Shown here: positions 15,407-61,873 of the stretch, piece by piece
Layout: every line of letters starts with the position of its first letter
Position numbering within the stretch: the stretch's first letter is position 1
NCBI RefSeq assembly: GCF_020711235.1
Contig: NZ_JAJFAV010000006.1
Location: forward strand, 1-64,000
Direction of reading: 5' to 3'
From: Hymenobacter sp. 15J16-1T3B
GTDB lineage: Bacteria; Bacteroidota; Bacteroidia; Cytophagales; Hymenobacteraceae
Length of the DNA: 64,000 nt
Position numbers and translations under genes: made by a program
The notes under the pieces: generated by a model
What the model saw: only the letters and a program-made list of their open reading frames with translations
Database searches by the model: none
Told to the model about the DNA's origin: nothing

Positions 15407-15480
15407 GGTATCGGGTAGGGATACTGCCTGATGCCGGGGCCCCGCGCCGCCTTCCTACGCAGTCCTTAATACCCGATACC
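15407..15480. repeat. Intergenic palindrome between ccmB and ccmC
   Basis: Perfect 11-base arms (GGTATCGGGTA at 15407-15417 and its complement at 15470-15480) enclose a GC-rich inner segment containing GCCGGGGCCCCG. The right arm ends four bases before the ccmC ATG. It has no T-tract and resembles the other intergenic palindromes in position. Confidence 0.7.
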
Positions 15481-15484
15481 GAAC

Positions 15485-16156
15485 ATGAAAAACGCCTGGT
15501 GGAAAGTGTTGACGGTGGTGCTTTTGCTCTACACCGTGGTGATGGGCCTGCTCGGCCACGCGCCGCGGTTGGCCATCCTCAACGAAACCATCCGCAACCT
15601 TTACTTCCACGTGCCGATGTGGTTCGGCATGACCATCATCCTGTTTGCCTCGGTGGTGTACTCGGTGCGCTACCTGCGCAAGCCCTCCGACCGCCTCGAC
15701 GTGCTGGCCCACCACACCGCCGTCACCGGCATCGTGATGGCCTGCCTGGGGCTGGCTACCGGCAGCATCTGGGCCCGGTATACCTGGGGCACCTGGTGGA
15801 CGGCCGACCCGCGCCTGAACGGGGCCGCCGTGGCCGTGATGATTTACGGCGCCTACTTGGTGCTGCGCTCCTCCATTACCGACGAGCAGCAGCGGGCCCG
15901 CATTTCGGCCGTCTACAACATTTTCGCCTTCTGCGCCGCCATTCCCCTGCTGTTCATCCTGCCCCGCCTCACCGACTCGCTGCACCCCGGCGCCGGCGGC
16001 AACCCGGGTTTCAGCAAGTACGACCTCGACAACAACATGCGCCTGGTGTTCTACCCGGCCGTCATTGCCTGGACGCTGCTCGGCGTCTGGATTACCAACG
16101 TGTCGGTGCGCCTGGCCCTCGTCAAACACAAGCTGTATGAAAAACAACTGGCTTAA
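15485..16156 (+). CDS. ccmC: Cytochrome c maturation protein CcmC (haem delivery to CcmE)
   Basis: A 223-residue protein with six membrane spans that loads haem onto CcmE in the periplasm. The tryptophan-rich haem-handling loop reads WGTWWTADPRL (residues 101-111); the Bacteroidota form has Ala where enterobacterial CcmC has Trp. The haem-ligand histidine in YFHVPMWF is His42. It overlaps the start of the ccmD-like gene by 20 bases, indicating translational coupling. CcsA-type proteins of System II are related, but the CcmB/E/F neighbours decide the assignment. Confidence 0.93.
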   Translation: MKNAWWKVLTVVLLLYTVVMGLLGHAPRLAILNETIRNLYFHVPMWFGMTIILFASVVYSVRYLRKPSDRLDVLAHHTAVTGIVMACLGLATGSIWARYTWGTWWTADPRLNGAAVAVMIYGAYLVLRSSITDEQQRARISAVYNIFAFCAAIPLLFILPRLTDSLHPGAGGNPGFSKYDLDNNMRLVFYPAVIAWTLLGVWITNVSVRLALVKHKLYEKQLA

Positions 16157-16385
16157 CCAGTTCTCGCGCCGCGCCCTGCTGGCGCTGGCCGCCGTGCTGC
16201 TGCCGCTCTACTCGGCCCTGGCCCAAGCGCCCGAAGCCGGCCCCGAAATGGCCGACCAGCTGCGCCAGGACGGCAAAATCTACGTGGTGGTGGCCGTCAT
16301 CGTGGTCATCGTGGTGGGGCTGCTGGCCTACTTGGTGAGCATCGACCGCAAAGTGAGCCGCCTGGAGCGGGAGCTGCGCGACTAA
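16137..16385 (+). CDS. CcmD-like small membrane protein
   Basis: 82 residues starting at an ATG inside the 3' end of ccmC. It has an N-terminal hydrophobic signal-like stretch, a short exposed region, and a second membrane helix (IYVVVAVIVVIVVGLLAYLVSI) with a charged tail (DRKVSRLERELRD). Position between ccmC and ccmE and the one-helix-plus-basic-tail form fit CcmD, which in Proteobacteria helps release haem-loaded CcmE from CcmABC. It is longer than enterobacterial CcmD and has an additional hydrophobic N terminus. The assignment rests mainly on context. Confidence 0.75.
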   Translation: MKNNWLNQFSRRALLALAAVLLPLYSALAQAPEAGPEMADQLRQDGKIYVVVAVIVVIVVGLLAYLVSIDRKVSRLERELRD

Positions 16386-16493
16386 CGAAAATCATTTCGA
16401 GGGGCCGGATTTTTTCTGCCCTTTGTAGTTGTTTCAACGGGCTGGCTGCCGCGTAGCCGGTCCTATTTCCCGGCTGCTGTTGTCTTAAGCACC

Positions 16494-16922
16494 ATGAAAA
16501 AAACTCATTTGCTGGCCCTCGTGGTCATTGCCATTGCCATCAGCATCGTCATGGCCACCGCCGGCGACGCCTCGGTATACGTCTCGTTCAAGGAAGCCAA
16601 GGAACTGGCCGCCGACGGCGACCTGCGCAAGGTGCACGTGGTAGGCCGCCTGCCCCACGACGCGCAAAAGAACATCGTCGGAATGCAGTACAACCCGACG
16701 CTGGACCCGAATTACTTCGCCTTCATGCTGGTGGATACCAACCATGTGCAGCAGCAGGTGGTGTACTACAACCCGAAACCGCAGGACTTCGACAAGTCGG
16801 AGCAGGTGGTCATCACCGGCAACATGCGCAACGACATTTTCGTGGCCGACAAGATTCTGCTGAAGTGCCCGTCGAAGTACGTGGAGAAGGAAGTGAAAGG
16901 CGCTACGGCGTCGATCAACTAA
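16494..16922 (+). CDS. ccmE: Cytochrome c maturation haem chaperone CcmE, cysteine type
   Basis: A 142-residue periplasmic haem chaperone with an N-terminal membrane anchor (residues 5-22) and an OB-fold (VHVVGRL, VVITGNM, FVADKILLKC). The haem-attachment site of enterobacterial CcmE is a histidine in HxxxY; here the position reads Cys125-P-S-K-Tyr129, the CxxxY variant known from the System I* of some archaea and deltaproteobacteria. It receives haem from CcmC and passes it to CcmF. A 108-base gap precedes it, in which I see no clear promoter. Confidence 0.93.
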   Translation: MKKTHLLALVVIAIAISIVMATAGDASVYVSFKEAKELAADGDLRKVHVVGRLPHDAQKNIVGMQYNPTLDPNYFAFMLVDTNHVQQQVVYYNPKPQDFDKSEQVVITGNMRNDIFVADKILLKCPSKYVEKEVKGATASIN

Positions 16923-17001
16923 ACAATACAACTACCGGTGAGCAAGGAGCCGGGCGGCCGCGGGCCGCTGACGGGCTTGCGCACTGGCCATTGAGGAAAG
17001 C

Positions 17002-19581
17002 ATGAACATCGGCGACTGGGGACATTTGGGCGTTATCGTGGCCTTCGTGGCGGCGGTAGTGTCCGCGTTGGGGTATTTTATGGCGGCGCGCGGCCGGGCT
17101 TTGGGCGAGGTGGATGCCTCGTGGCAACGGCTGGGGCGCGGTGCGTTCCTGGTGCATGGCGTGGCCGTGCTGGGCGTCATCGTGGCGCTGTTCGGCATCA
17201 TTCACGGGCACCGCTACGAGTACTATTACGCCTGGTCGCACAGCAGCAACCACCTGCCGGTGTACTACATGATTTCCTGCTTCTGGGAAGGCCAGGAAGG
17301 CTCATTTTTGCTTTGGATTTTCTGGCACGTGCTCATCGGCTTCTGGCTGATTCGCGGCGCCAAACAGTGGGAGGCGCCGGTTATGGCTGTGTTTGCCTTC
17401 GTGCAGCTGTTCCTCACGTCCATGATTCTGGGCGTGATGCTGGGCGGCATCAAGCTGGGCTCCTCGCCCTTCATTCTGATGAAGGAGTTCATGCCCGACC
17501 TGCCGGTCTACAAGCTCAACCCCGACTTTGTGCCCCAGGACGGCACCGGCCTGAACCCGCTGCTGCAAAACTACTGGATGGTGATTCACCCGCCCACGCT
17601 GTTCCTGGGCTTCGCCCTCACGCTGGTGCCCTTTGCCTACGCCATTGCCGCGCTCTGGAAAAACCAGCTGACCACCTGGGTGCCCCAGGCCATTCGCTGG
17701 AGCCTGGTGGGCGGCGGCGTGCTGGGCGTGGGCATCATGATGGGTGCCTATTGGGCCTACGAGACGCTGAACTTCGGCGGCTACTGGAACTGGGACCCGG
17801 TCGAAAACGCCGTGTACATTCCCTGGCTGGTGCTGGTGGCAGCCCTGCACGGGCTGGTGCTCTGGCAGCGCGGCAAAACCGGCCTGCGCACCGCCTTTAG
17901 CTTGGTGGTAACCACCTTCCTGCTGGTGCTCTACGCCACGTTCCTGACGCGCTCCGGCGTGCTGGGCAACGCCTCGGTGCACTCCTTCACCGACCTGGGC
18001 CTCTCGGGCCAGCTGCTGGTGTACCTGCTGGCCTTCGTGGTGCTGAGCGTGGCCCTGCTGGTGTGGCGCTGGAAGCAGATTCCGGTGTCGGAGAAAGAGC
18101 TGACCATGTACCACCCCGAGCTGTGGGTGTTCATTGGCGCGACGGTGCTCTGCCTGGGCGCCTTCCAGGTGCTCGTCACCACCAGCATTCCGGTCTACAA
18201 CGCCATTGTGGGCTTCTTCGGCGTGAAGTCGAACCTGGCCCTGCCCGCCGACCAGATTGCCCACTACACCAAAATTCAGCTGTGGCTGGGCGTGTTCGTG
18301 GCCCTGTTTTCGGGCATTGCCCAGCTGATGTGGTGGCAGCGCAACGACAAGGAAACCGTCAGCGCCACCTTCACCATCCCGGCCATTCTGACCCTGCTCG
18401 GCGCCAGCCTCGTCATCCTGCTGGTGCGCCAGAACGGCGACCATCAGATGTCGCTGCCCTACATTGCCCTGCTGACCTGCGGCCTGTTCGGGCTGCTGGC
18501 CAACGTGAGCATGCTCATCCAGTTGGTGCGCCGCGGGGTGCGCCTCTCGGGCGGTGCCGTGTCGCACATCGGCATTGCGCTGATGCTGCTGGGCATCCTG
18601 GCCTCCGCCGGCTATTCCAAGATTATTTCGCAGAACACCTCCGGTCTGCTCTACTCGCGCGAATTCTCGGAGGAGCTGAACCGCGACAACGTGCTGCTTT
18701 GGCGCAATGACGTGGCCAAAATGGGCAAGTACGAGCTAACCTACACCGGGCAGTACTTCGATGTGCCCGGCGTGCCGGAATACGTCAACAAGGAGCTGCT
18801 CTTCCCCGTCGCCAACGACGAATACAAGGCCATTGCCCGCGGCGAAATCAAGGCAGGGGAGAAGACCTACTACAAAGCCGGCGACACGCTGGAAGTACGT
18901 CCTGAGGACACCTACTACCGCGTCAACTACAAGGACACCAAGTCGGGCAAGGAGTTCGTGCTCTTCCCGCGCGCTCAGGCCAACGAGGAAATGGGCGGTC
19001 TGCTCGCCTCGCCCGACATCAAGCTGTTCTGGGACCACGACATCTACTCGCACATTTCGTCGGTGCCCGATCCGAACAAGGAGAAGGACTGGTCGGAAGC
19101 CAAGAAGTACTCGGTGGCCATGAACGACACGCTGTTCTTGAACGACTACTTCGCCGTGTTCAAGAACGCCGAGCCCGCGCACAACACCGCCGGGCTGGGC
19201 CTCTCGAAGGACGACATTGCCGTGCAGGGTGACATCATCGTCTACGGCGAGAAAGGCCGGCAGTACCACGTGCACCCCATCTTTCTTGTCAAAAACGGCA
19301 TGGTGGGCCGCGTGGCCGACGAAATCGAAGACCTGGGCCTGCGCATCACCCTCGACGAAATCGACCCGCAGAAAGGCAAGTTTACCTTCGGCGTGGCTAC
19401 CACCCAGAAGGACTACGTCATTCTGAAAGCCATGGAAAAGCCCTTCATCAACCTGCTCTGGAGCGGCACGCTGCTTATGGGCCTGGGCTTCGGCATGGCC
19501 GTGGTGCAACGCGGGCGCAAGCCCAAGGCCGCGCCGGCCGGCAAAGCTCCGCGCAACGCCAAGCACGTGCAGGTGGCCTAA
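17002..19581 (+). CDS. ccmF: Cytochrome c haem lyase CcmF
   Basis: An 859-residue multi-spanning inner-membrane protein that transfers haem from CcmE to apocytochrome c. The tryptophan-rich WWD domain is present (FGGYWNWDPVENAVYIPWL, about residue 260), as are the conserved start and the HPPTLFLGF segment. It is about 200 residues longer than enterobacterial CcmF, with a large exposed domain between about 560 and 820, usual for Bacteroidota. No CcmH or CcmI follows; a terminator does. Confidence 0.94.
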   Translation: MNIGDWGHLGVIVAFVAAVVSALGYFMAARGRALGEVDASWQRLGRGAFLVHGVAVLGVIVALFGIIHGHRYEYYYAWSHSSNHLPVYYMISCFWEGQEGSFLLWIFWHVLIGFWLIRGAKQWEAPVMAVFAFVQLFLTSMILGVMLGGIKLGSSPFILMKEFMPDLPVYKLNPDFVPQDGTGLNPLLQNYWMVIHPPTLFLGFALTLVPFAYAIAALWKNQLTTWVPQAIRWSLVGGGVLGVGIMMGAYWAYETLNFGGYWNWDPVENAVYIPWLVLVAALHGLVLWQRGKTGLRTAFSLVVTTFLLVLYATFLTRSGVLGNASVHSFTDLGLSGQLLVYLLAFVVLSVALLVWRWKQIPVSEKELTMYHPELWVFIGATVLCLGAFQVLVTTSIPVYNAIVGFFGVKSNLALPADQIAHYTKIQLWLGVFVALFSGIAQLMWWQRNDKETVSATFTIPAILTLLGASLVILLVRQNGDHQMSLPYIALLTCGLFGLLANVSMLIQLVRRGVRLSGGAVSHIGIALMLLGILASAGYSKIISQNTSGLLYSREFSEELNRDNVLLWRNDVAKMGKYELTYTGQYFDVPGVPEYVNKELLFPVANDEYKAIARGEIKAGEKTYYKAGDTLEVRPEDTYYRVNYKDTKSGKEFVLFPRAQANEEMGGLLASPDIKLFWDHDIYSHISSVPDPNKEKDWSEAKKYSVAMNDTLFLNDYFAVFKNAEPAHNTAGLGLSKDDIAVQGDIIVYGEKGRQYHVHPIFLVKNGMVGRVADEIEDLGLRITLDEIDPQKGKFTFGVATTQKDYVILKAMEKPFINLLWSGTLLMGLGFGMAVVQRGRKPKAAPAGKAPRNAKHVQVA

Positions 19582-19603
19582 CAGCCCGCTCGCTTACCAC
19601 GCT

Positions 19604-19645
19604 GCCACGGGCCGTCCGACCACTCGGACGGCCCGTGGCGCGTTT
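19604..19645 (+). terminator. Strong rho-independent terminator of the ccm operon
   Basis: A perfect 16-base-pair stem (19604-19619 with 19624-19639; core GGGCCGTCCGA) with the loop CCAC is followed by GCGTTTAAA. It lies 23 bases after the ccmF stop. Confidence 0.85.
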
Positions 19646-19905
19646 AAATGGTCATGAGCCGGGCGTAAGGTCCGGGCGCCAGGGGCAGCACCAGCTGCTC
19701 GCCGCGGCCATCCGACCGGCTTTCCTCCTCAATGCCGCTGTTAAAGGGCCGCGCAACGGTTAAATGCGGATGTACGCGCTGAGCAGGCTGTCCCCTAGGC
19801 CAAGCTACCGTACGCCGTGTGTAGGCCGATAGCGCATCAACAGTGCTTAACCCGATGCTGCCGATGCTGCACGCGGAACCCAGGACGCGGCGCCGGCAGC
19901 GGGGC
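19646..19905 (-). pseudogene. Possible degenerate coding remnant
   Basis: This 387-base gap between ccmF and the next gene has no normal gene. On the minus strand a frame ends with a protein-like stretch (RGEQLVLPLAPGPYARLMTI then TAA), while its upstream part is arginine-rich, has no start signal and does not look conserved. I read it as either the 3' remnant of a lost gene or chance. No family could be recognised. Confidence 0.2.
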
Positions 19906-19945
19906 AAAAAACAACGGGCGGCTCGCGTTAGCGGGCCGCCCGTTG
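19906..19945 (-). terminator. Rho-independent terminator of the T9SS cargo gene
   Basis: On the minus strand a 15-base stem (19912-19926 with 19931-19945, containing CGGGCGGC) is followed by six T residues (19911-19906). It starts 24 bases after the stop codon at 19969. Confidence 0.88.
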
Positions 19946-19968
19946 GCAACAACCAGTGAAGGGAATCC

Positions 19969-21900
19969 TTACTTGGTGATGCTGATGGTGCGCATCATGT
20001 ACTGGGCACCGTCGCTAACCTTGAGGGTGTAGAGGCCCTTGGCCAGGTGCGAGAGGTTAACCGGCGTCGACACGTTGTCACGCACCGAAGCCGTGTGCAC
20101 GCGCTGGCCGAGCAGGTTGGTCACTTCCAGCTGCAGGCCGTGGGTGGCGTTGGCGCCGCGCACGTCCAGCGTAAACTCGCCGTTCGAGGGGTTCGGGTAC
20201 ACGTTGATGGCCGATTCCAGCGCCTTCGACACGCCCGTGGTCGTGTTGAAGATAGCGTCAACCATCAGGATGCCGAAGTTCTGCGAGGCAATATCGCCGG
20301 GGGTGTTGGCGCCGGTGAAGTTAATCGGGGCCAGGCTGTAGAACACGCCCGTGCGGGTCGGGTTTTCCAGCTGGAAAGCGGCCGGGTAGAAGATTACGCT
20401 GCCGGTGGGGTTCACCACCCCAATGCCCAGGTAGAAGTTGCCAGCGGCCAGCGTGGCCGGGGTCGTGAACGTGAAAGCCTTGTAGGCGTTCAGGTCCGTG
20501 GCCTGCACCACGTAGTCAGCCGAGCGGGCTACAACGTTGCCGGCTGCATCCAGGGCCAGGGCAAACACCGTGCGGCCCACCGTGGTGTTGGCCGCCGTGG
20601 CGCTGCTCACCAGGTAGATGTTGGCGCCGCTGATTTGGCGCGAGGCCGAGAGGTTGAACTTGCTCAGGAACGCACCGGTGGCGTTGGTAGGCTGAATGCC
20701 CACCAGCGAGTTAGCCGGCGTGCCGTTTTCGTAGCTGTAGGTGTTGCTGGTCACCTGCTGCGTAACGGTCTTGGTGTTGTTGGCCGCGTTGTCGTCGGCC
20801 AGCAGGCTCACCGTGATGTTGTTGGTGCCCAGCGCGGCCGGCGAGAACGTGCCGAAGTTGACGGTGGTCTGCGCGCCAACTGCCAGCGAGGGTACGGCCT
20901 GGGTGTTGGAGTAGGTCGTAGCGCCCGATACGCTCAGCGTTACCGGAATCAGCGTCTGGGCCGTGGTGCCCACGTTGCGCAGCACCGCCTGCACCACCTG
21001 GCCGCCGCCGCCCGTCAGCGGTACTTTGGTGGCCGAGTAGATCAGCTGTACTTCGATGTCGTTGGCGTACTGCGGGGAGAAGCGGTAGGTGCGGCCGGCG
21101 TCCGGCAGCACCGTGTTGCGGATGTTCAGCGCGTTGGTCGTGCCGTCGTAGGGCAGGTCGCTGAAAGTGGTCGTCGACCAAGCGTTGACCGACGCCTTGC
21201 TGGCCGTAATAACCTGGCCCTGCAGCGGGCTGGTGCCCTTCAGGCCGGCCGTGGCCCAGTGCGGGTTCGAAGTGAGCGTGCTGGCCACCGCCGAGCCGTA
21301 CACGAACTCGATAACGTTGGTGCTTTCGTACAGCTTCACCTGGAAGGAGATATTGGCGTACTGCTTGGCTACTGCGGTACCCGTCTTGTCGCTGACGTTC
21401 TTCCACTGAATCGTGCATACCCGGTTCGGGGCCGTGCCGGTGGTGGCCACGCGGTACTCGGCGCCGCCGGTGCCCGAACCAGCTTCCAGGTCCAGGTTGA
21501 ACGGAATGATCAGGTTCGCGTCGGCCGCGTTGATGCTGTTGATCGGACCGCCGGTCTGCGGGGCGTTGTCGGCCGTGAACAGCGCGGCGGAGCTCGGCGC
21601 CGTCGTGCCCAGCTTCACGAAGCCGTTGGTGTTCAGAATGAACTGGGTAAACGACTGCCCGTTGAAGTTGAAGGCAAAGCCGATGTTCTGGGGCGTGGAG
21701 TTGGCGTCGTCGGTGCTGGTAGTGCTGATGACGGTGCCCGTAGCGGCCAGATCGGTGTAGGTGCCGGCCACGTTCTGCACGAGGGGCACGGTGTAGTTCA
21801 GGGTTTGTGCCGAAGCAGCGGTACCGGCCAGCGACAGCAGACCCAGCAGGGCCAAGCCACGCCAGTTGCCCCGGCGGGCAACGCGTTTAGAAGAAACCAT
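19969..21900 (-). CDS. Secreted T9SS cargo protein with CARDB-like and sorting domains
   Basis: 643 residues from the ATG at 21900, chosen because it begins a signal peptide (GLALLGLLSLAGTAASAQ); upstream in-frame residues do not look like a leader. The N-terminal part has a beta-sandwich pattern (FAFNFNGQSFTQFILNTNGFVKLG) seen in Bacteroidota surface proteins. About residues 310-420 resemble a CARDB adhesion domain (NVGTTAQTLIPVTLSV, DDNAANNTKTV). The end is a type A sorting domain (INVYPNPSNGEFTLDV, ending RTISITK). It is probably a surface adhesin or matrix protein; no catalytic site is visible. Confidence 0.85.
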   Translation of the reverse strand: MVSSKRVARRGNWRGLALLGLLSLAGTAASAQTLNYTVPLVQNVAGTYTDLAATGTVISTTSTDDANSTPQNIGFAFNFNGQSFTQFILNTNGFVKLGTTAPSSAALFTADNAPQTGGPINSINAADANLIIPFNLDLEAGSGTGGAEYRVATTGTAPNRVCTIQWKNVSDKTGTAVAKQYANISFQVKLYESTNVIEFVYGSAVASTLTSNPHWATAGLKGTSPLQGQVITASKASVNAWSTTTFSDLPYDGTTNALNIRNTVLPDAGRTYRFSPQYANDIEVQLIYSATKVPLTGGGGQVVQAVLRNVGTTAQTLIPVTLSVSGATTYSNTQAVPSLAVGAQTTVNFGTFSPAALGTNNITVSLLADDNAANNTKTVTQQVTSNTYSYENGTPANSLVGIQPTNATGAFLSKFNLSASRQISGANIYLVSSATAANTTVGRTVFALALDAAGNVVARSADYVVQATDLNAYKAFTFTTPATLAAGNFYLGIGVVNPTGSVIFYPAAFQLENPTRTGVFYSLAPINFTGANTPGDIASQNFGILMVDAIFNTTTGVSKALESAINVYPNPSNGEFTLDVRGANATHGLQLEVTNLLGQRVHTASVRDNVSTPVNLSHLAKGLYTLKVSDGAQYMMRTISITK

Positions 21901-23650: not shown

Positions 23651-23714
23651 GCCAAGGAGGGTAAGGGGCTAGGCGTTGTCGGCACGATGACACCTACCCC
23701 TTACCCTCCTTGGC
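23651..23714. repeat. Intergenic palindrome between iscX and kdsC
   Basis: Perfect 18-base arms (GCCAAGGAGGGTAAGGGG at 23651-23668 and its complement at 23697-23714) with partly paired inner bases. No T-tract follows; the kdsC-like ATG is 34 bases downstream. The sequence differs from the other palindromes. Confidence 0.8.
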
Positions 23715-34219: not shown

Positions 34220-35242
34220 ATGGGGTTCTTCAATTTCACCAGCGACATTGCCATCGACTTGGGTACGGCCAATACGCTGATCATCCACAACGATAAAATC
34301 GTGGTCGATGAGCCCAGCATTATTGCCAAAGACCGTACGACCAACAAGGTCATTGCCGTGGGCCGGCAAGCGCAGCAAATGCACGAGAAGACCCACGATA
34401 ACATCAAAACCATCCGCCCGCTGAAGGACGGCGTCATTGCCGACTTCCACGCCGCCGAGGAAATGCTCAAGGGGCTGATTCGGATGGTGAATACCGGCAC
34501 GCGGCTGTTTCAGCCTTCGCACCGCATGGTTATCTGCATCCCGTCGGGCATCACCGAAGTGGAAAAGCGCGCCGTGCGTGACTCCGCCGAGCACTCCGGG
34601 GCCAAGGAAGTGTGGATGATTCAGGAGCCCATGGCCGCCGCCATCGGCATCGGCATCGACGTGGAGCAGCCCGTGGGCTCGATGATCATCGACATCGGCG
34701 GCGGGACCACCGAAATTGCGGTTATCGCGCTGTCGGGCATCGTCTGCGACCAGTCTATCAAGACGGCCGGCGACGTGTTCAACCAGGACATTCTCGATTA
34801 CATGCGCCGGCAGCACAACCTGCTCATCGGCGAGCGGAGCGCGGAGCGCATCAAAATCGAGGTGGGCGCGGCCCTGACGGAGCTGGAAAACACCCCGCCC
34901 GACTACGAAGTGCGCGGCCGCGACCTGATGACCGGCATTCCGAAGGTTATCAAGGTGACCTCGGCCGAAATTGCCATTGCCCTGGACAAGTCGGTGGCCA
35001 AAATCGAGGAAGCCGTGCTCAAGGCCCTGGAAATTGCCCCGCCCGAGCTGTCGGCCGACATCTACGACAACGGCATTCACCTGACGGGCGGCGGCGCCCT
35101 GCTGCGCGGCCTCGACCGGCGCCTGGCGGCCAAAACCAAGCTGCCCGTGCACGTGCCCGAAGACCCGCTGCGCGCCGTGGTGCGCGGCACCGGCGCCGCC
35201 ATCAAGAACATCACCGGTTTCCGCAGCGTCCTGTTATCCTAA
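34220..35242 (+). CDS. mreB: Rod shape-determining actin homologue MreB
   Basis: 340 residues starting MGFFNFTSDIAIDLGTANT; phosphate-1 motif DLGTAN is at residues 13-18. Phosphate-2 (IIDIGGGTTEIAVI) and the adenosine loop (GGGALLRGLD) are present. MreB forms membrane-bound filaments that guide the elongasome with MreC, MreD, PBP2 and RodA, all encoded just downstream. ATG 34220 was chosen over an upstream frame extension because it fits the family N terminus. Confidence 0.97.
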   Translation: MGFFNFTSDIAIDLGTANTLIIHNDKIVVDEPSIIAKDRTTNKVIAVGRQAQQMHEKTHDNIKTIRPLKDGVIADFHAAEEMLKGLIRMVNTGTRLFQPSHRMVICIPSGITEVEKRAVRDSAEHSGAKEVWMIQEPMAAAIGIGIDVEQPVGSMIIDIGGGTTEIAVIALSGIVCDQSIKTAGDVFNQDILDYMRRQHNLLIGERSAERIKIEVGAALTELENTPPDYEVRGRDLMTGIPKVIKVTSAEIAIALDKSVAKIEEAVLKALEIAPPELSADIYDNGIHLTGGGALLRGLDRRLAAKTKLPVHVPEDPLRAVVRGTGAAIKNITGFRSVLLS

Positions 35243-35254: not shown

Positions 35255-35318
35255 TGAGACATGAGAAGTGGGATGGACGACCGGTTACGGAGTCGGCTGT
35301 CCCGCTTCTCATGTCTCA
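35255..35318. repeat. Intergenic palindrome between mreB and mreC (family E)
   Basis: Arms TGAGACATGAGAAGTGGGA (35255-35273) and its complement (35300-35318) pair at 18 of 19 positions, the exception being a G-T. Flanking words GAAGTGAGAC and TTTCTCATGTC extend the symmetry. A second member of this family lies at 51805-51860. The mreC ATG is at 35340. Confidence 0.85.
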
Positions 35319-38985: not shown

Positions 38986-39085
38986 GTCATCCTGAGCGCA
39001 GCGAAGGACCTTATCACCGCAGAACGACAGGCGTCAGGTAGTCACCAGCCCGCGTGATAAGGTCCTTCGCTGCGCTCAGGATGAC
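38986..39085. repeat. 100-base palindromic element between PBP2 gene and rodA (family F)
   Basis: Perfect 32-base terminal arms (38986-39017 and 39054-39085; core CCTGAGCGCAGCGAAGGACC) flank a 36-base centre containing GAACGACAGGCGTC. A second copy lies in the opposite orientation at 61768-61873, with similarity extending through the centre. The element ends 31 bases before the rodA start. No T-tract. Confidence 0.9.
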
Positions 39086-39116: not shown

Positions 39117-40406
39117 TTGAACCAGGTTCGTTACAGCCGCAGCATCGATTGGGTCACCTTCTTCATCTACCTCGCAATGGTAGGAGTGGGGCTGCTCAAC
39201 GTGTACGCCGCCTCGTACTCGGCCGACGTGCCGTTTTCGCGCGTGTTTTCGGCTGACTGGAGCGGGCTGATGGCCTTCAACTGGTTTAAGCAGCTGGTCT
39301 GGCTCGGGGTGGCGGTGCTGCTCATCATGGTGCTGCTCGTCATCGACTACAAGGCCTACGACACCTTTGCCTACGTGCTCTACGGGGGCATGATTGCCTT
39401 GCTGCTCGTCACCTTGGTCATTGCGCGGCCTATTGCGGGTTCCCGCTCCTGGCTGGAACTAGGCCCCATGCGCCTGCAGCCGGCCGAGTTTGCCAAGTTC
39501 ACGACGGCCCTGGCCGCCTCGCGCTTTATGGCGGGCATCAACCTGCGCCAGCAGGCCTTCAAGCAGCAACTAGTGCTGGCGGGCCTTACGCTGCTGCCCC
39601 CGCTGCTCATCATTTCCTCCAACGAAACCGGGCAGGCGCTGGTATTCGGAGCCTTTCTGCTGGCCTACTTCCGCGAGGGCATGTCGCCGCTGATTCTGCT
39701 GGTGCTGGCCGCGGCGGGCCTCGTGCTCATTCTCTCGCTGCTGGTGCCCAAGCTCTGGCTGGTGGGCGCTTTCACGGTGATTCTGGCCCTAGTGCTGGTG
39801 CTGAACCCGCGGGTGCTGCGCCACCATTTGCCGCTGGCGGCGGGCGTCTACGCGGTGGTGCTGGGCATGGTGTTCGGCGTCGATTTCTTCTACAACAACG
39901 TGCTGCAGCCCCACCAGCAGAAGCGCATCGAAGTGCTCTTGAACCCCTCGGCCGACCCGCTGGGTGTGGGCTGGAACGTGACGCAGTCCAAAATTGCCAT
40001 CGGCTCGGGCGGCCTCGCGGGCAAGGGCTTCCTCGAGGGCACCCAGACGCGCTTCGACTTCGTGCCCGAGCAGAGCACCGACTTCATTTTCTGCACAGTG
40101 GGGGAGGAGTGGGGCTGGCTGGGCACCATGACGGTCATCGGGCTCTTCATGGCCCTGATTTTTCGCGTCATCTTCGTGGCCGAGCGGCAGAAATCGGTGT
40201 TTGGTCGCACCTACGGCTACTGCGTGGCCAGCATCATCTTCTTCCACTTCTGCGTCAACATCGGCATGACCATCGGGCTGGCGCCGGTGGTGGGCATTCC
40301 GCTGCCGTTCTTCTCGTACGGCGGCTCCTCCTTGTGGTCGTTTACCATCCTGCTCTTCATCCTGCTGGCCATCGACGCCTACCGCAAGCAGGACTTGGTG
40401 CGCTAA
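39117..40406 (+). CDS. rodA: Peptidoglycan glycosyltransferase RodA
   Basis: 429 residues from a TTG start, with about ten membrane spans. SEDS-family signatures are present: GSRSWLELGPMRLQPAEFAK (about residue 110), the large extracytoplasmic loop, GWNVTQSKIAIGSGGLAGKG, and IPLPFFSYGGSS at the end. It polymerises lipid II into glycan strands with PBP2. It is last in the elongasome block. FtsW is related, but the context is decisive. Confidence 0.95.
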   Translation: MNQVRYSRSIDWVTFFIYLAMVGVGLLNVYAASYSADVPFSRVFSADWSGLMAFNWFKQLVWLGVAVLLIMVLLVIDYKAYDTFAYVLYGGMIALLLVTLVIARPIAGSRSWLELGPMRLQPAEFAKFTTALAASRFMAGINLRQQAFKQQLVLAGLTLLPPLLIISSNETGQALVFGAFLLAYFREGMSPLILLVLAAAGLVLILSLLVPKLWLVGAFTVILALVLVLNPRVLRHHLPLAAGVYAVVLGMVFGVDFFYNNVLQPHQQKRIEVLLNPSADPLGVGWNVTQSKIAIGSGGLAGKGFLEGTQTRFDFVPEQSTDFIFCTVGEEWGWLGTMTVIGLFMALIFRVIFVAERQKSVFGRTYGYCVASIIFFHFCVNIGMTIGLAPVVGIPLPFFSYGGSSLWSFTILLFILLAIDAYRKQDLVR

Positions 40407-40407
40407 A

Positions 40408-43475: not shown

Positions 43476-43510
43476 GCAGCGCCGTCGATGACCGGCTCTT
43501 GCCACCAAAC

Positions 43511-43549
43511 ACGACGCGGGCCCGGTTAGCGTAACCGGGCCCGCGTCGT
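43511..43549. terminator. Bidirectional hairpin between convergent genes
   Basis: An 18-base perfect stem (43511-43528 with 43532-43549; core CGGGCCCGGTTA) with a three-base loop lies between two convergent genes. There is no long T-tract on either side. Confidence 0.65.
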
Positions 43550-43570
43550 GGGATGCCACTGCAAGGCGGG

Positions 43571-45321: not shown

Positions 45322-45502
45322 AGTCCTTGCGAGCAAAGCAATCCTTCCTCTCGCGGTACCACGGCCCCGCTAGCAAAAGCCGAAAACCAGCCCCGCCCGA
45401 AACCACCACTGTTGGTTTCGGGCGGAGCTGGTTTTCGGTTAGTGAGTATTTCAGTGTTTCTGCTGCTAGAGGAACGATTGCCACGCTTCGCTCGCAAGGA
45501 CT
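45322..45502. repeat. Nested palindromic element between ferredoxin and recO
   Basis: Outer arms AGTCCTTGCGAGC (45322-45334) and its complement (45490-45502) are perfect over 13 bases. Inside, 25-base arms (45380-45404 and 45414-45438; core CCGAAAACCAGCC) pair at 24 of 25 positions with a nine-base loop. The words TTGCGAGCAAAGCAATCC and GATTGCCACGCTTCGCTCGC look like two ends of a dispersed repeat into which the inner palindrome may have inserted. The 281-base gap contains no gene. Confidence 0.8.
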
Positions 45503-51804: not shown

Positions 51805-51860
51805 GAGACCTGAGAAGTGTGATGAACAATTCGAATCGTCCGTCTCACTTCTCAGGTCTC
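51805..51860. repeat. Intergenic palindrome between the DHH and FKBP genes (family E)
   Basis: Arms GAGACCTGAGAAGTGTGA (51805-51822) and its complement (51843-51860) pair at 17 of 18 positions. It shares the words AGAAGT, GTGAGAC and TGAGAAGTG and the outer CTCATGTCTC with the element at 35255, including the flanking order. The symmetry extends almost to the stop codon of the DHH gene. Confidence 0.85.
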
Positions 51861-56708: not shown

Positions 56709-56742
56709 AAAAAAGCCCCGCACGGGGCCGTGCGGGGCTTTC
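56709..56742 (-). terminator. Rho-independent terminator of sod
   Basis: On the minus strand GCCCCGCAC/GTGCGGGGC form a stem followed by six T residues (56714-56709), 22 bases after the sod stop. Confidence 0.9.
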
Positions 56743-56763
56743 GGGTCGGGAAGCGGACGATGC

Positions 56764-57378
<615 letters not shown>

Positions 57379-57531
57379 AGTGTGAAGGGGGTGAGGAAGG
57401 GTGATGAGATGGGTGAAAAACCCGCCGGCCGACCGGCATCGGGCCGCCGGGCACGCAATGTGTTGCCGGTATGCTAACCGCCAAGGCGGGGCGTGGGTTA
57501 CAAAATAGTCCTACGCCGGCGCCAAAAGTAG

Positions 57532-57990
57532 CTATTTCCGCCGCTCGGCAAAGAAGCGCTGCATCAGGGCGGCGCACTCAGCGGCCAGCACGCCCGTGAC
57601 GACCTGGCAGCGCGGGTGCAGCAGCTGCCCGTGCCGGGAGTAGCCCACTTTGGGCTCGGGCGTGCCGTAGACCACCCGCGGCACCTGGGCCCAGGCCGCG
57701 GCCCCGGCGCACATCACGCAGGGCTCCACCGTCACGTACAGGGTGCAGTCGTGCAGGTACTTGTTGCCGACGAAGTTGGCCGCCGCCGTCAGGGCAAGCA
57801 TTTCGGCGTGGGCCGTCACGTCGCGCAGCTGCTCAGTCTGGTTGTGCCCGCGCCCGATGACCTGGCCGGTGCCGTTGAAGGCCACCACCGCCCCGATGGG
57901 AATTTCGCCGGCGGCGTAGGCCAGCTCGGCCTCGCGCAGGGCCTGGCGCATGAGGCGTTCGTGCTGGGCGGCGCTAAGGGAAGGTTTCAT
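57532..57990 (-). CDS. tadA: tRNA adenosine(34) deaminase TadA
   Basis: 152 residues from ATG 57990. The zinc deaminase motifs are His61-A-Glu63 (in TAHAEMLAL) and Pro90-Cys91-V-M-Cys94 (EPCVMCAGA). The N terminus (HERLMRQALREAELAYAAGEIPIGAVV) is that of TadA, which converts A34 to inosine in tRNA-Arg. A guanine deaminase is a less likely relative. A perfect -7 box lies at 58009-58016. Confidence 0.93.
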   Translation of the reverse strand: MKPSLSAAQHERLMRQALREAELAYAAGEIPIGAVVAFNGTGQVIGRGHNQTEQLRDVTAHAEMLALTAAANFVGNKYLHDCTLYVTVEPCVMCAGAAAWAQVPRVVYGTPEPKVGYSRHGQLLHPRCQVVTGVLAAECAALMQRFFAERRK

Positions 57991-58008
57991 AGGGGGCGGC
58001 TGGAGCCA

Positions 58009-58016
58009 CAAAGGTA
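58009..58016 (-). promoter_or_regulatory. -7 promoter box of tadA
   Basis: TACCTTTG on the minus strand, a perfect match, 18 bases before the tadA ATG. Confidence 0.65.
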
Positions 58017-58075
58017 TGGCTCCGGTAGCTGAGCTGTGGGGAGTTGGGCAGACGCCGCTTCGCCCTCTGGGCAAC

Positions 58076-58110
58076 AAAAAAGCCCCGCATCAACCGATGC
58101 GGGGCTTTTT
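58076..58110 (-). terminator. Rho-independent terminator of the ABC permease/M1 gene
   Basis: GCCCCGCAT (58082-58090) and ATGCGGGGC (58097-58105) form a stem; on the minus strand six T residues follow (58081-58076). Its sequence resembles the sod terminator. Confidence 0.9.
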
Positions 58111-58128
58111 CTCGACGGAAAAGTCAGC

Positions 58129-61100
58129 TTACGCCTTCTTCTCCTCCGGAATCTTCACGTTGTCGTCCGGGTTGCGGTCGATCAGTTTGTTGAAGGGGTC
58201 GATGCCGACGCGCTCGGGCTTCTGCGGCACGGTCAGCTCGATGCGGTTGCGGCCGGGCCGCAGGCGGCGCTTCTGCACCAGCACGGGCACATCGTGCCAC
58301 TTGCCGGCCTTGTCCTTCTCGCGGCCCATGATGCCCACGTCGACGAAATCCTGGGTTTTGGCGGCGGTTTCGTTGCCCAGCGAGTCGGCGTAGAACTTCT
58401 TGGTGTCGACGGTGAACTGCACGCGGTACTGCCCGTTGGGCAGCTTGCGGTAGGAGGCCGAGTCGACCTTGTTCTCGTAGAGCGTAATCTTCTCGAACAT
58501 ATCCGTCACCAGGTACTGCAGGGAGTCGGGCGTGTGCTTGCGCAGGTAGCCGATGAACTCCACCGAGTTGGTGAAGGGCGGGCGCTGGAACGCCACCTGC
58601 TGGCGGTACTCCTGGATGGCGGCGTTGACGGCGTCCTCGCCGATGTAGTCCTGCAGGGCGTACATCACCAAGGAACCCTTGCGGTAGTGGATGTAGGGCT
58701 GGTTTTCGACCAGGTACAGCGGCACTTCCTTTTTCTGCTCGAAGCCGCGGCCCGAGAGGTAGTCGTCCAGCTCGTAGCGCAGGAATTTCTTCATCTTCTC
58801 CGGGCCGTAGAGGTGCTTCATCACCATCAGGGCGCCGTACTGGCTCAGCGTTTCCGACATCAGCGTGGAGCCCTGCACGTTGCCGCCGATGATCTGGTGG
58901 GCAAACCACTGGTGGGCCACCTCGTGGGCCGTCACGTAGAGCGGGTAGTCGATGTCCTTGGGGTCGGTGGAGTCGACTTCGGCAATGAAGCCGATGCTTT
59001 CGGAGAAGGGAATCGTGTTCGGGAACGACTGCGCGAAGCCCGCGTAGCCCGGGAATTCGAGGATGCGCACCTGCCGGTGCTGGTAGGGGCCGAAGTGCGA
59101 GGTGTAGTAGCTCAGGCCTTCCTTCACGCCCCGGGCCATGCGCTTGAGGTTGTACTCGTGGCCGGGGTGGTAGTAGATTTCAATCGGCACGTTGTTCCAC
59201 CGGTCCTTGTACACCGCGTAGCGGGCCGAGAGGAAGGAGTAGAAGTTTAGGATGGGCGCGTCCATCTTGTAGTGGAAGTAGCGGCGCCCGTCCTTGGTCC
59301 ATTCCTTCTGCAGGTAGCCCGGGGCAATGGCCAGCTGGTCGGGCGAGGTGCTGACGGTGGTTTCGAAGCGAATCCAGTCGGCGTCGTTGCTGATGTAGGT
59401 GTTCATGCGCGCCGCCGAGTCGTTCACCGCGGCCATGCGCGGCTTGGGCTTCAGGCCCTGCTCCTTGCGCGTGTCGTCGTCGCCCAGCTCATACTCGGGC
59501 TGGTAGCCGATGTGGGGCAGTAGCTGGGAGTTGACGAAGGTGCCGTTGTACACCATGCTCGTGTTGGAGCCGCGGTTCTGGAAGCCGGGGTTGGTGTAGG
59601 CCAGGTCGAAGTTCAGCTGCACCGAGTCGCCGGGCTGCAGGGGCTGCTGCAGGCGCAGGATGCGGTAGTCGGCGTCGCCGATCTGGTCGTGCAGCACCTC
59701 CTTGGCCGGGCGGCCCAGCGCCAGCTGCTTCACCTCGGCGTCGCTGGCGCCCATCAGGTGCACCGAGTCGATGGCCTGCCGGGTGCGGTTGACCAGCCAG
59801 TAGCTGCCGCGGAAGCGCACGTCGCGCTCCTGAGGGAAAATGTCCACGTTCACGTTGACGGCCGAAATGCGCGGCTGCGCGGCCTTCTCGAAGCGCTTGT
59901 ACTTGCGCTCAAAGGCGGCGGTCAGCTCGTCGCCCTCGTCGGAGGTGCGGTACTCGTTCAGCACGTTGGTGTTGTAGAAGATGTAGCCGCCCAGCCCCGC
60001 AAAAGCCAGCAGCGCCGCCCCGGCCACGGCCGCCAAGGCGGGCGAAAAGCCGTAGCGGGCCTGCTGCCAGCGCCAGGAGAAGCGCGTTTCGGTGCCGCGG
60101 GGCCAGAGCAGCGAGGACGCCAGGGCCAGCAGTACCGCGAAGGCGCCCCAGTAGAGCTTAAAGGCCACGTAGGGCCACACGAAATGCCCGTAGCCGTTCA
60201 TGGCCGAGTAGAGCACCGAGGGGCCGGCGTTCGGGAACAGCAGGTTGTGCTCGATGCCCAGCGTGCCCTTGAAGATGTTCAGGGCGTAGTACAGGATCAT
60301 GATGAAGTGGCCGAGGAACTTGTTGTTCACCAGCACCTGCACCAGCATGGCCAGCACGCAGAGCACCAGCATGCCCGCCAGGCGGAAGCCGAACAGCTCC
60401 TTCACGTACACGTCCAGCTCGTAGTCGAAGTAGCCCTTGGCCGTTTGCAGCAGGATGCCGCAGAGCATGACCACCGCCAGCAAGATGACCTGAATGGCCA
60501 TCAGCGCGCCCAGCTTGGCCGCGAAGGGCACCCAGGCGGGCATGGGCATGGCGTCGTAGATCTGGTTGACCTTACTGTCCCGCTCGCGCCACACCAGCTC
60601 GCCGGCGTAGAAGGTGATGATGATGAGCTGGAACAGGGCGAAGGTGCCGGCTAGCAGCTGCACCACCTGCGGGGTGGTGGGGAAGGTGTTGGTGCCGTAC
60701 ATCTTGCCCACCTGCAGGCCCGAAATCAGCAAAAACAGCACGCCCGCCCCGGCAATGCCGATGAAGTACACGCTGCGCACGGTGCTCAGGAACTCCAGGC
60801 GCAGCAGGCGGCTGAGCTGGGCCCAGGCCAGCCCGGCCGTGAAGTGCGGGGTGACGCGCGGCAGCACCAGCTTGCCCGGCGCCTCGGCCACGCCCAGGGC
60901 ACCCTTGGGGCGCGGGCCCGAGTCGGCCGCGTTGGCGAAGGAAAAGCGGAACACGGCAAAGCAGGCGCCCAGCGTCACCAGGCCCACGGCCAGCCAGAGC
61001 AGGCGGTTTTGCACCACCCACTCGCTCCAGGGCAGCAGCAGCGTGTTCTTTTCGGCCACCGTCCAGTAGCGCTGCGTCAGGTCGATGGCCTGGCCGCCCA

Positions 61101-61749
61101 GCGGGTCGAGCAGGCTGCGCAGGGTTTCGTTGTCCATGTCCTGCTGCAAGGTGCCGCTGATGGTGTAGAGCACCAGAAACAGCACCCCGCCCAGGTAGAT
61201 GGCCAGGGCCGAGCGCGTGAGCGTGGCCGCCGTGAAGAAGATGGCGCCGGTCAAGAACACGTTCGGCAGCACAAACTGCAGGTAAGGCAGCAGGTAATTC
61301 GCCAGCCGGTTGGGCCCCAGCCGTTCCGGGTCGATGGTGGGCCAGAAGGTGGCCAGCCAAGCGCCCAGGGCCGCGCCCAGAAACACCAGCATGGTCACCA
61401 CAAACGAGCCCAGGAAGCGGCCGCCGAGGTAGCCGGTCTTGGTAATCGGGGCGGTGTAGTACAGCGAGTGGGTGCGGTGGTCGAAGTCGCGGAACACCGG
61501 CGTGCCCATCATGGCCGAGGTGATGAACACCCCGAACAGGCTGATGACCGTCAGCAGGGTGTTGATCTGGTAGGCCGAGTTGGCCAGCATTTTGCCCGAG
61601 GCGCCGCCCACCGTCACGTTGACGCCAAACGCGCCGGCAATGGCCAGCATGAACAGAAAGGCCATCAGGGCCAGCAGCCCGAAGTAGATGTACGTCGCCG
61701 GCCGCTTCAGCCGGTAGCGCAGTTCGAAGAGGAATATTTCGAGGAACAT
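58129..61749 (-). CDS. ABC transporter permease fused to an M1-family aminopeptidase
   Basis: A 1206-residue fusion. Residues 1-about 630 are an ABC-2-type permease with two sets of about six membrane spans. The rest is a periplasmic M1 aminopeptidase: His942-Glu943-x2-His946 in TAHEVAHQWFAHQ, with Glu966 (in MSETLSQ) as the third ligand candidate; the spacing is 20 residues. The fusion is common in Bacteroidota and pairs with the ATPase encoded upstream. Whether it exports peptides and trims them, or senses them, is not established. A palindromic element sits 18 bases before the start. Confidence 0.9.
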   Translation of the reverse strand: MFLEIFLFELRYRLKRPATYIYFGLLALMAFLFMLAIAGAFGVNVTVGGASGKMLANSAYQINTLLTVISLFGVFITSAMMGTPVFRDFDHRTHSLYYTAPITKTGYLGGRFLGSFVVTMLVFLGAALGAWLATFWPTIDPERLGPNRLANYLLPYLQFVLPNVFLTGAIFFTAATLTRSALAIYLGGVLFLVLYTISGTLQQDMDNETLRSLLDPLGGQAIDLTQRYWTVAEKNTLLLPWSEWVVQNRLLWLAVGLVTLGACFAVFRFSFANAADSGPRPKGALGVAEAPGKLVLPRVTPHFTAGLAWAQLSRLLRLEFLSTVRSVYFIGIAGAGVLFLLISGLQVGKMYGTNTFPTTPQVVQLLAGTFALFQLIIITFYAGELVWRERDSKVNQIYDAMPMPAWVPFAAKLGALMAIQVILLAVVMLCGILLQTAKGYFDYELDVYVKELFGFRLAGMLVLCVLAMLVQVLVNNKFLGHFIMILYYALNIFKGTLGIEHNLLFPNAGPSVLYSAMNGYGHFVWPYVAFKLYWGAFAVLLALASSLLWPRGTETRFSWRWQQARYGFSPALAAVAGAALLAFAGLGGYIFYNTNVLNEYRTSDEGDELTAAFERKYKRFEKAAQPRISAVNVNVDIFPQERDVRFRGSYWLVNRTRQAIDSVHLMGASDAEVKQLALGRPAKEVLHDQIGDADYRILRLQQPLQPGDSVQLNFDLAYTNPGFQNRGSNTSMVYNGTFVNSQLLPHIGYQPEYELGDDDTRKEQGLKPKPRMAAVNDSAARMNTYISNDADWIRFETTVSTSPDQLAIAPGYLQKEWTKDGRRYFHYKMDAPILNFYSFLSARYAVYKDRWNNVPIEIYYHPGHEYNLKRMARGVKEGLSYYTSHFGPYQHRQVRILEFPGYAGFAQSFPNTIPFSESIGFIAEVDSTDPKDIDYPLYVTAHEVAHQWFAHQIIGGNVQGSTLMSETLSQYGALMVMKHLYGPEKMKKFLRYELDDYLSGRGFEQKKEVPLYLVENQPYIHYRKGSLVMYALQDYIGEDAVNAAIQEYRQQVAFQRPPFTNSVEFIGYLRKHTPDSLQYLVTDMFEKITLYENKVDSASYRKLPNGQYRVQFTVDTKKFYADSLGNETAAKTQDFVDVGIMGREKDKAGKWHDVPVLVQKRRLRPGRNRIELTVPQKPERVGIDPFNKLIDRNPDDNVKIPEEKKA

Positions 61750-61767
61750 GGTCGCGTCGTGGTTGTC

Positions 61768-61873
61768 CCCGTCATCCTGAGCAAAGCGAAGGACCTTCCC
61801 ACGTCAGATAGTAACTATCCGACGCCTGCCGTTCAGCGGGCATAAGGTCCTTCGCTCTGCTCAGGATGACGGG
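61768..61873. repeat. Palindromic element between ATPase and permease genes (family F)
   Basis: 30-base arms (61768-61797 and 61844-61873; core CCTGAGC, AGCGAAGGACCTT) differ at one position. The core and centre match the element at 38986-39085 in inverted orientation, including GAACGNCAGGCGTC. It fills the gap between two co-transcribed ABC genes. Confidence 0.9.

What the first reader, a model, noticed from the sequence alone, without database searches (positions are those of the whole stretch)
15407..61873. Recurrent long palindromes placed just upstream of start codons between co-directional genes
At least nine intergenic palindromes (15407, 23273, 23651, 25678, 35255, 38986, 40408, 51805, 61768) sit between two genes transcribed in the same direction. 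They end 4-60 bases from the downstream start codon (ccmC 4, iscX 5, mreC 21, the ABC permease 18, rodA 31, kdsC 34, barrel gene 29, FKBP about 56). They lack T-tracts, and in most cases they do not share sequence. This is seen directly. A mobile-element origin (such as REP/RAYT-type elements) or a role in mRNA processing or differential expression inside operons is inference.
Basis: partly seen in the sequence, partly recalled or inferred. Interest (0 to 1): 0.75.

Follow-up and report, generated by a model that had tools for sequence, protein, structure and literature searches.

The report
Operon hairpins from two mobile-palindrome families
Several of the hairpins between genes in this Hymenobacter genome look like stripped-down copies of two kinds of small mobile hairpin element, one that carries a GIY-YIG DNA-cutting enzyme and one that carries a four-helix-bundle protein, which offers a candidate enzyme for a class of bacterial palindromes described as having none.

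Summary
Eight of the nine palindromes are real; 40408 is not. Distances to start codons are as reported, but hairpins are denser per base between convergent genes, and 92 of 107 co-directional ones lie nearer the upstream stop.

They are not one thing. 38986 and 61768 are CGTC-type REP dimers, a superfamily described in 2013 as lacking a dedicated transposase. Longer versions carry a stand-alone GIY-YIG nuclease gene between such palindromes: both such genes of this genome; 23 of 51 Bacteroidota loci by a motif test (controls 0 of 208); 10 of 15 plasmid-record loci by a structural test (controls 0 of 195). REP stem type follows nuclease clade.

35255 and 51805, and less surely 23273 and 23651, have arms of 7-8-base tandem repeats. 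Such arms bracket PF05635 four-helix-bundle (23S-IVS-type) genes: 24 of 30 loci against 9 of 142 controls, and 12 of 12 further loci from Cyanobacteria, a spirochaete and Bernardetia.

Between mreB and mreC a hairpin is present in 57 of 64 loci, although its sequence type needs about 26 changes on the tree. This fits selection for an RNA hairpin supplied by mobile palindromes. Mobility, nuclease action and RNA function are inferred, not shown.

The parts
38986..39085 (.). CGTC-type REP dimer (tags outward, stem ATCCT, tag TGTC) between mrdA and rodA, no ORF
   Evidence: 32/32 bp arms; family of 120 half-sites, 0 in control; same junction holds a GIY-YIG ORF between REPs in H. jeollabukensis
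61768..61873 (.). CGTC-type REP dimer (stem ATCCT, tag CGTC) between ABC ATPase and ABC permease genes, no ORF
   Evidence: 30 bp arms, 97%; same family; by reading, other REP subfamilies at this junction in G001, G002, G003, G004, G006 and no palindrome in G005 and G007
35255..35318 (.). Tandem-repeat-armed hairpin (heptamer TGAGAnn) filling the mreB-mreC spacer
   Evidence: score 16, 12 nt after stop, 21 before start; z -9.2; hairpin in 57 of 64 loci at this junction
51805..51860 (-). Tandem-repeat-armed hairpin (GAGAnnn) between DHH phosphoesterase and FKBP genes
   Evidence: score 16; z -5.1; Pfam of neighbours
23651..23714 (+).
   Evidence: 18/18 bp arms; z -7.5; neighbours PF04384 and PF08282
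23273..23395 (+). Long nested hairpin filling the ferredoxin-iscX spacer, perhaps the tandem-repeat class (AATGTGCGG AATGTGG)
   Evidence: score 14, 5 nt from both stop and start 23401; -58 kcal/mol
15407..15480 (+). Imperfect hairpin between ccmB and ccmC, class unassigned
   Evidence: score 11; z -2.2; PF03379, PF01578
25734..25788 (+). GC-rich hairpin between UbiA-family and Omp85-family genes, class unassigned
34220..35242 (+). mreB
   Evidence: PF06723
35340..36260 (+). mreC
   Evidence: PF04085
37153..38970 (+). mrdA (PBP2)
   Evidence: PF00905, PF03717
39117..40406 (+). rodA (TTG start at 39117; TTGAACCA-like context also read in L165, L091, L170, L094)
   Evidence: PF01098; ORF; context

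Best explanation
Many of the operon hairpins are ORF-less (MITE/REPIN-like) derivatives of two kinds of small palindromic element that live in transcribed spacers. Kind A: CGTC-type REPs. The fuller unit is REP - stand-alone GIY-YIG nuclease gene - REP (about 400 bp or more, tags outward); I infer that the nuclease recognises the hairpin of its cognate REP stem type and cuts it, and that repair copies the unit, or the short dimer, into new places or over a resident hairpin. Kind B: hairpins whose arms are 7-8-base tandem repeats. The fuller unit carries a PF05635 four-helix-bundle (23S-rRNA-IVS-type) gene in the loop; how it moves is unknown, slippage plus copying between arms is likely. In the host both persist because they sit downstream of stop codons and outside promoters. 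At some junctions, above all mreB-mreC, the host has come to need the RNA hairpin (probably RNase III cleavage or 3'-end protection that sets the mreB:mreC ratio), so the structure is kept while its sequence is replaced by whichever palindrome is current. Shown here: the associations, the stem-clade pairing, the replacement record. Inferred: nuclease action, mobility, RNase III, expression role.
For: A: both stand-alone GIY-YIG genes of the genome are bracketed by outward CGTC REPs, uvrC and the 506-aa protein are not. GTCATnnnGA outward on both flanks in 10 of 22 small GIY loci (2 own, 20 relatives) and 13 of 29 across the phylum; 0 of 11 large GIY, 0 of 12 Y1, 0 of 30 IVP loci, 0 of 142 small genes of G000, 0 of 13 congeneric RAYT-like loci. 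Plasmid records: 10 of 15 fetched loci (15 of 32 hits) have structural REPs outward on both sides, 13 on at least one; 0 of 15 with another tag, and 0 of 11, 12, 30 and 142 controls. REP stem type tracks nuclease clade: 14 of 23 loci used, 5 changes, the minimum; shuffled mean 8.7, as low in 0 of 200, at loci without shared flanks except two orthologous pairs. Y18, R28, E65 of the nuclease invariant in 14 of 14 aligned. B: 24 of 30 PF05635 loci bracketed by inverted repeats against 9 of 142; arms of 20 nt or more periodic (z>2) in 21 of 22, against 0 of 62 CGTC, 2 of 56 convergent, 1 of 12 GIY, 1 of 10 RAYT, and 36 of 74 co-directional non-CGTC hairpins; 12 of 12 further plasmid loci bracketed (12 of 17 hits fetched). 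In the 1.264 Mb of G000, GTGAAnnnGTGAA has 39 matches in 19 clusters, 38 outside genes, 0 in control, including around the one PF05635 relic. Host: mreB-mreC hairpin in 57 of 64 loci; 26 type changes over 58 hairpin rows on the MrdA tree, shuffled mean 40; G-U 39 against A-C 17 mismatches (p 0.005).
Against: No transposition, cleavage or transcript was observed. No target-site duplication was seen by eye. In G000 no nuclease with ATCCT-type REPs was found, so the two window dimers are orphans there. Among 22 small GIY loci, L189, L190, L200, L202 and L215 do not show a REP on both sides by eye (one side in L200); among plasmid loci L252 and L258 show none by the structural test. In the phylum set inward-facing motifs are also common (both flanks 11 of 29), and 9 of 15 plasmid loci have at least one inward REP, so repeats cluster there. 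The nuclease tree is small and mostly weakly supported. The G-U excess is weak in subsets (CGTC in loci p 0.36, class B in loci p 0.08) and could reflect strand-biased mutation. mreB-mreC could be an insertion hot spot rather than a selected hairpin. Hairpin types are labels of my own; CGTC against the rest needs only 4 changes there. Half of the co-directional non-CGTC hairpins show no periodic arms. Window sites 15407 and 25734 fit neither class.
Confidence: 0.68

Rival explanations
1. The hairpins are REPINs of the known kind, mobilised by a RAYT (Y1 tyrosine transposase) now lost from this genome.
For: Six of seven congeners hold RAYT-like Y1 ORFs; palindromes with a GTAG tag flank some of them (L297, L300) and similar ones occur at mrdA-rodA in L114 and L167.
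Against: 0 of 13 congeneric RAYT-like loci and 0 of 12 other Y1 loci are flanked by CGTC REPs; the REPs flank GIY-YIG genes instead; own genome has no PF01797 match.
Confidence: 0.08
2. GIY-YIG and IVP genes are passengers: REP-rich or repeat-rich spacers capture small genes by chance or by recombination between palindromes, and the proteins do not act on them.
For: No biochemical evidence links protein and repeat; repeats cluster around many of these genes in both orientations.
Against: The same two families recur in several phyla, each with its own repeat kind and not the other's; stem type follows nuclease clade; other small genes are rarely bracketed (0 of 142 by the REP test, 9 of 142 by the inverted-repeat test).
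Confidence: 0.2
3. All are intrinsic terminators or 3'-end hairpins of the host with no mobile origin.
For: Location after stops and near absence from divergent spacers; 91 of 201 inverted repeats carry a T or A tract.
Against: Five of the six stronger sites of the finding lack a U-tract on the transcribed strand (partly by eye); dispersed 100-bp copies share loop sequence as well as arms by reading; ORF-carrying versions exist; type, and presence or absence, differ among congeners at one junction.
Confidence: 0.12
4. The mreB-mreC hairpin persists because the spacer is an insertion hot spot, not because the hairpin is needed.
For: CGTC REPs nested inside tandem-repeat hairpins at this spacer by reading (L123, L161, L117, L160).
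Against: Neighbouring junctions are occupied less (23 of 56, 28 of 47, 17 of 46, 2 of 17, 4 of 14); 57 of 64 is hard to keep by insertion alone.
Confidence: 0.3

Closest known systems
CGTC-tagged REPs (Di Nocera, De Gregorio, Rocco 2013, PMC3733652; abstract, passages and section 6 read)
   Same: CGTC/TGTC tag, stem beginning AT, head-to-head dimers, between co-directional and convergent genes
   Different: That paper reports no dedicated transposase, having looked at tyrosine and other transposase genes; 'GIY' does not occur in its text. Here a GIY-YIG nuclease gene lies inside. Hymenobacter stems are about 5 bp plus GA/GA mismatches rather than 8-9 bp
REPIN-RAYT (GTAG REPs with Y1 transposase; from PMC3733652 and recall)
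   Same: Two inverted REPs form the unit; a dedicated enzyme gene lies between or beside REPs
   Different: Enzyme is GIY-YIG, not HUH/Y1; different tag
23S rRNA intervening sequences with S23/IVP ORF (e.g. Coxiella IVS, PMC4990558; start of abstract in a listing only)
   Same: Insert in a stem-loop whose ORF encodes an S23/PF05635-type protein
   Different: Here in mRNA spacers, with heptamer tandem-repeat arms and many ORF-less copies
Cyanobacterial STRR heptanucleotide repeats (recalled, not read)
   Same: Degenerate 7-base tandem units in Nostoc-type genomes, where IVP genes are bracketed by such arms
   Different: I know of no report that ties them to PF05635 genes or to operon hairpins
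Homing GIY-YIG endonucleases of introns; SLX1 branched-DNA nuclease (recalled)
   Same: Same catalytic domain, cut-and-copy logic
   Different: No intron; palindromic ends instead

Membership tests
CGTC REP superfamily | Tag CGTC, TGTC or CCTC directly before the hairpin | tested here: met
   38986 TGTC, 61768 CGTC; 120 GTCATCCTGAGC half-sites, 0 in control; variants as in section 6 of PMC3733652
CGTC REP superfamily | Stem starting with AT | tested here: met
   45 of 45 structurally defined REPs in 1.264 Mb have T second (the A was imposed), 1 hit in the reversed control
CGTC REP superfamily | Stem of 8-9 bp, loop of 4-5 | tested here: inconclusive
   Hymenobacter stems 5 bp + GA/GA + about 2 bp; the ATCCT family of the window has a mismatch in the first pair
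CGTC REP superfamily | Head-to-head dimers, extragenic | tested here: met
   Outward pairs, often about 88 bp apart
REPIN-RAYT | Y1 tyrosine transposase associated with the repeat | tested here: not met
   0 in own genome; 0 of 13 congeneric RAYT-like loci carry CGTC REPs
GIY-YIG nuclease | PF01541 domain over cut-off with catalytic Y, R, E | tested here: met
   L183 61.8 bits, L184 59 bits, cut-off 22.6; Y18, R28, E65 invariant in 14 (their catalytic role is recalled)
IVS / IVP elements | PF05635 ORF inside a stem-loop | tested here: met
   24 of 30 and 12 of 12 loci; own genome has one relic with an internal stop, not bracketed by that test but lying in GTGAAnnn arms
IVS / IVP elements | Location inside 23S rRNA | tested here: not met
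   Directly downstream of mrdA in L111, L098, L106, between protein genes on plasmids; rRNA genes were not examined
Intrinsic terminator | U-tract after the hairpin | tested here: not met
   Of six finding sites with score 15 or more, 23651, 25742, 38986 and 51805 have none by the script; 61768 has its T run on the other strand (by eye); 35255 has TTTT followed by CTC
MITE/IS | Target-site duplication | tested here: inconclusive
   None seen by eye in flanks of 17 elements

The most novel reading that the evidence does not exclude
Bacteria hold at least two further protein-palindrome systems beside RAYT-REPIN: a GIY-YIG nuclease that mobilises CGTC REPs, with each nuclease clade matched to one REP stem, and a four-helix-bundle IVP system that spreads heptamer-armed hairpins across phyla; hosts use the debris as interchangeable RNA processing hairpins, so a regulatory structure at mreB-mreC is kept for a whole genus while its sequence is replaced dozens of times.
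Probability: 0.5. Interest if true: 0.92.

Novelty: new variant of a known kind. Interest (0 to 1): 0.8.

Why it matters
CGTC REPs were found in five phyla and include Neisseria dRS3 and some rickettsial RPE repeats (PMC3733652); they were left in 2013 without an enzyme. A concrete candidate with clade-specific pairing makes that open question testable on a bench. The IVP link could explain heptanucleotide hairpins and bear on the origin of rRNA intervening sequences. The mreB-mreC record would be a natural case where RNA structure is kept and sequence is swapped wholesale.

Tried and rejected
RAYT as mobiliser: rejected for the CGTC class. A single mechanism for all nine sites: rejected; two classes, two unassigned sites, one non-site. 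A relaxed REP regex (reps2) was useless: it hit the reversed control more often than the real sequence. A general 'GTC + 6-bp hairpin' regex is not specific in this GC-rich genome (325 hits for GTC, 313-666 for seven other tags); only the flank test with its controls is used. Target-site duplications: none found. DNA search of the plasmid collection with the element: no match. Proximity to start codons as the organising rule: rejected, the upstream stop is nearer in 92 of 107.

Rows dropped or chosen: one search used 14 of 23 nuclease loci (22 small loci plus the ORF in L165); left out L189, L190, L200, L202, L205, L208, L209, L210, L215 (no stem, or another hairpin form, on reading); the L199 label rests on its upstream flank and on reading. 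One search used only arms of 20 nt or more, and 15 named GIY loci. 15 of 32 and 12 of 17 plasmid hits were fetched, chosen to avoid near-duplicate records. Hairpin types were set by regular expressions of my own; L100 and L111 were mislabelled and 8 of the 66 rows have no hairpin of score 13 or more; redone this gives 26 changes over 58 rows instead of 29 over 66 (24 without those two rows). In one search the bare motif GTCAT also hit 1 of 30 IVP loci on both flanks and 4 of 11 large GIY loci on one. In one search six PF05635 loci, the own relic among them, gave no bracket; all 9 control hits are counted, weak ones too.

Literature: ten searches of open-licence PMC; I saw listings only, at most 25 papers each (for instance 25 of 405). 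No listed title or abstract start links GIY-YIG to REPs or PF05635 to tandem-repeat hairpins; the one paper holding both 'GIY-YIG' and 'repetitive extragenic palindrom' (PMC9465073) has them in a gene table and in a reference; RepRanger (PMC12306157, passages) has neither GIY nor transposase. Subscription papers were not searched.
Full report
Where it is. The window is positions 1-64000 of contig 39 of a 6.33-Mb, 42-contig genome. Its mrdA protein is 97% identical to Hymenobacter jeollabukensis and 96% to H. edaphi, so it is a Hymenobacter.

Observation. Hairpins in spacers far exceed shuffles (107 against 1 of 575 co-directional spacers). But of 201 inverted repeats in 1.264 Mb, 110 are co-directional, 84 convergent, 3 divergent, 3 in genes and 1 at a block end; per base the convergent class is densest, 91 of 201 carry a T or A tract, and 92 of 107 co-directional hairpins lie nearer the upstream stop. 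So the rule is 'after stop codons, not in promoters', not 'before start codons'.

Class A. Sites 38986 and 61768 belong to a dispersed family: GTCATCCTGAGC occurs 120 times in the genome, 0 in the backward-read control. Several dimers of about 100 bp share loop sequence as well as arms at different loci, by reading. With sister families (ATGCT, ATGTC, ATTCC, ATTGC) they have a GTC tag followed by AT-nnn, GA, loop, GA, complement: 45 in 1.264 Mb against 1 in the reversed control, and 45 of 45 stems start AT, the A imposed. A related pattern gives 371 hits in the own genome (control 5) and 75-504 in seven congeners, but near none in several other genera. This is the CGTC superfamily of Di Nocera et al. 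2013 (PMC3733652; [quoted passage not shown]

The enzyme candidate. In H. jeollabukensis the mrdA-rodA spacer, where the window has an ORF-less dimer, holds a GIY-YIG ORF between two REPs. The own genome has four PF01541 genes: both stand-alone ones lie between outward-facing REPs, the 635-codon (uvrC-size) and the 506-codon ones do not. The simple motif GTCATnnnGA, outward on both flanks, is found at 10 of 22 small GIY-YIG loci (2 own, 20 from relatives) and 13 of 29 loci across the phylum, and on at least one flank at 15 and 23; controls give 0 of 11 large GIY-YIG, 0 of 12 Y1, 0 of 30 PF05635 loci, and 0 of 142 (both) or 4 of 142 (one) small genes of G000; the 13 RAYT-like loci of congeners give 0. 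Inward-facing motifs are also frequent in the phylum set (both flanks 11 of 29), meaning that repeats cluster there. The loci are the best-scoring ones that the searches returned, not a random sample. In plasmid records 32 of 72,556 hold a relative of the protein, several from genera named in the CGTC paper; of 15 fetched, 10 have structural REPs outward on both sides and 13 on at least one, 0 with another tag. Copies in Azospirillum (annotated) and, by reading the flanks, in a Shinella plasmid sit between sufB and sufC. REP stem and nuclease clade go together: 14 of 23 loci, six stem types, 5 changes on the protein tree, the fewest possible, shuffled mean 8.7; only two pairs of loci share flanking DNA, so the pairing has been carried to different sites. 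The tree is small and mostly weakly supported.

Class B. Many other co-directional hairpins have arms of degenerate 7-8-base repeats, such as GAGACATGAGAAGTG (35255), GAGACCTGAGAAGTGAGAC (51805) and, elsewhere in the genome, GTGAAnnnGTGAA (39 matches in 19 clusters of the 1.264 Mb, 38 extragenic, 0 in control). In L111, L098 and L106 such arms surround a PF05635 gene directly downstream of mrdA. Of 30 PF05635 loci 24 are bracketed by inverted repeats, against 9 of 142 small genes. The arms are periodic (best lag 7 in 18 of 22; 21 of 22 with z above 2), unlike CGTC (0 of 62), convergent (2 of 56), GIY-YIG (1 of 12) and RAYT (1 of 10) arms; 36 of 74 co-directional non-CGTC hairpins of the Hymenobacter-and-relative loci are periodic and 14 of 74 share a 10-mer with a PF05635 bracket, against 0 in the other four sets. 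Twelve further loci from plasmids of Cyanobacteria, a spirochaete and Bernardetia are all bracketed, 11 of 12 with periodic arms. The own genome keeps one PF05635 relic with an internal stop, with GTGAAnnn arms on both sides though not scored as bracketed.

Host side. At mreB-mreC a hairpin of score 13 or more is present in 57 of 64 loci, against 23 of 56, 28 of 47, 17 of 46, 2 of 17 and 4 of 14 at other junctions nearby (comparison). Two Pontibacter loci and two outgroups have 4-51-nt spacers without one. The hairpin type, CGTC REPs in 10 rows, needs 26 changes on the MrdA tree over the 58 rows that have a hairpin (shuffled mean 40); the labels are mine. Hairpins begin a median 12 nt after the stop and end 19 nt before the start. 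Mismatches on the mRNA strand favour G-U over A-C, 39 to 17; pooled over co-directional hairpins the excess holds in each class but is modest (p 0.009, 0.02, 0.02), and single subsets are mostly not significant. At the 61768 junction, G001, G002, G003, G004 and G006 carry other CGTC subfamilies and G005 and G007 have no palindrome, by reading.

Reading. The simplest account is that two mobile palindrome systems keep supplying hairpins to transcribed spacers, and that some junctions have come to depend on having one. Binding, cutting, movement, RNase III processing and expression effects are inference.

Noticed in passing
L246 (Azospirillum lipoferum) and L260 (Shinella sp.): REP-flanked GIY-YIG gene between sufB and sufC in two orders of Alphaproteobacteria (annotated in L246, by reading the flanks in L260); perhaps a preferred site.
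   Followed up: partly
L312 (Anabaena cylindrica) and L313 (Nostoc): PF05635 four-helix-bundle gene with tandem-repeat arms lies between cas2 and cas1 on plasmids.
   Followed up: no
L297, L300; L114, L167 mrdA-rodA: Third hairpin kind: GTAG-type palindromes (TGTAGCGCGAACTTT..AGTTCGCG) flank some Hymenobacter RAYT-like genes and similar ones occur ORF-less in the mrdA-rodA spacer.
   Followed up: partly
L123, L161, L117, L160 mreB-mreC: CGTC REPs nested inside the loop of tandem-repeat-armed hairpins, which suggests that the REP came after the hairpin.
   Followed up: partly
L118 and L119 mrdA-rodA: In L118 one arm has about eleven heptamers and the other about four; in L119 long heptamer arrays lie on both sides of an assembly gap: the repeats expand like microsatellites.
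   Followed up: no
window 43510-43550 and 45380-45438: Strong hairpins, one between convergent genes and one after a minus-strand gene in a co-directional spacer; probably terminators.
   Followed up: no
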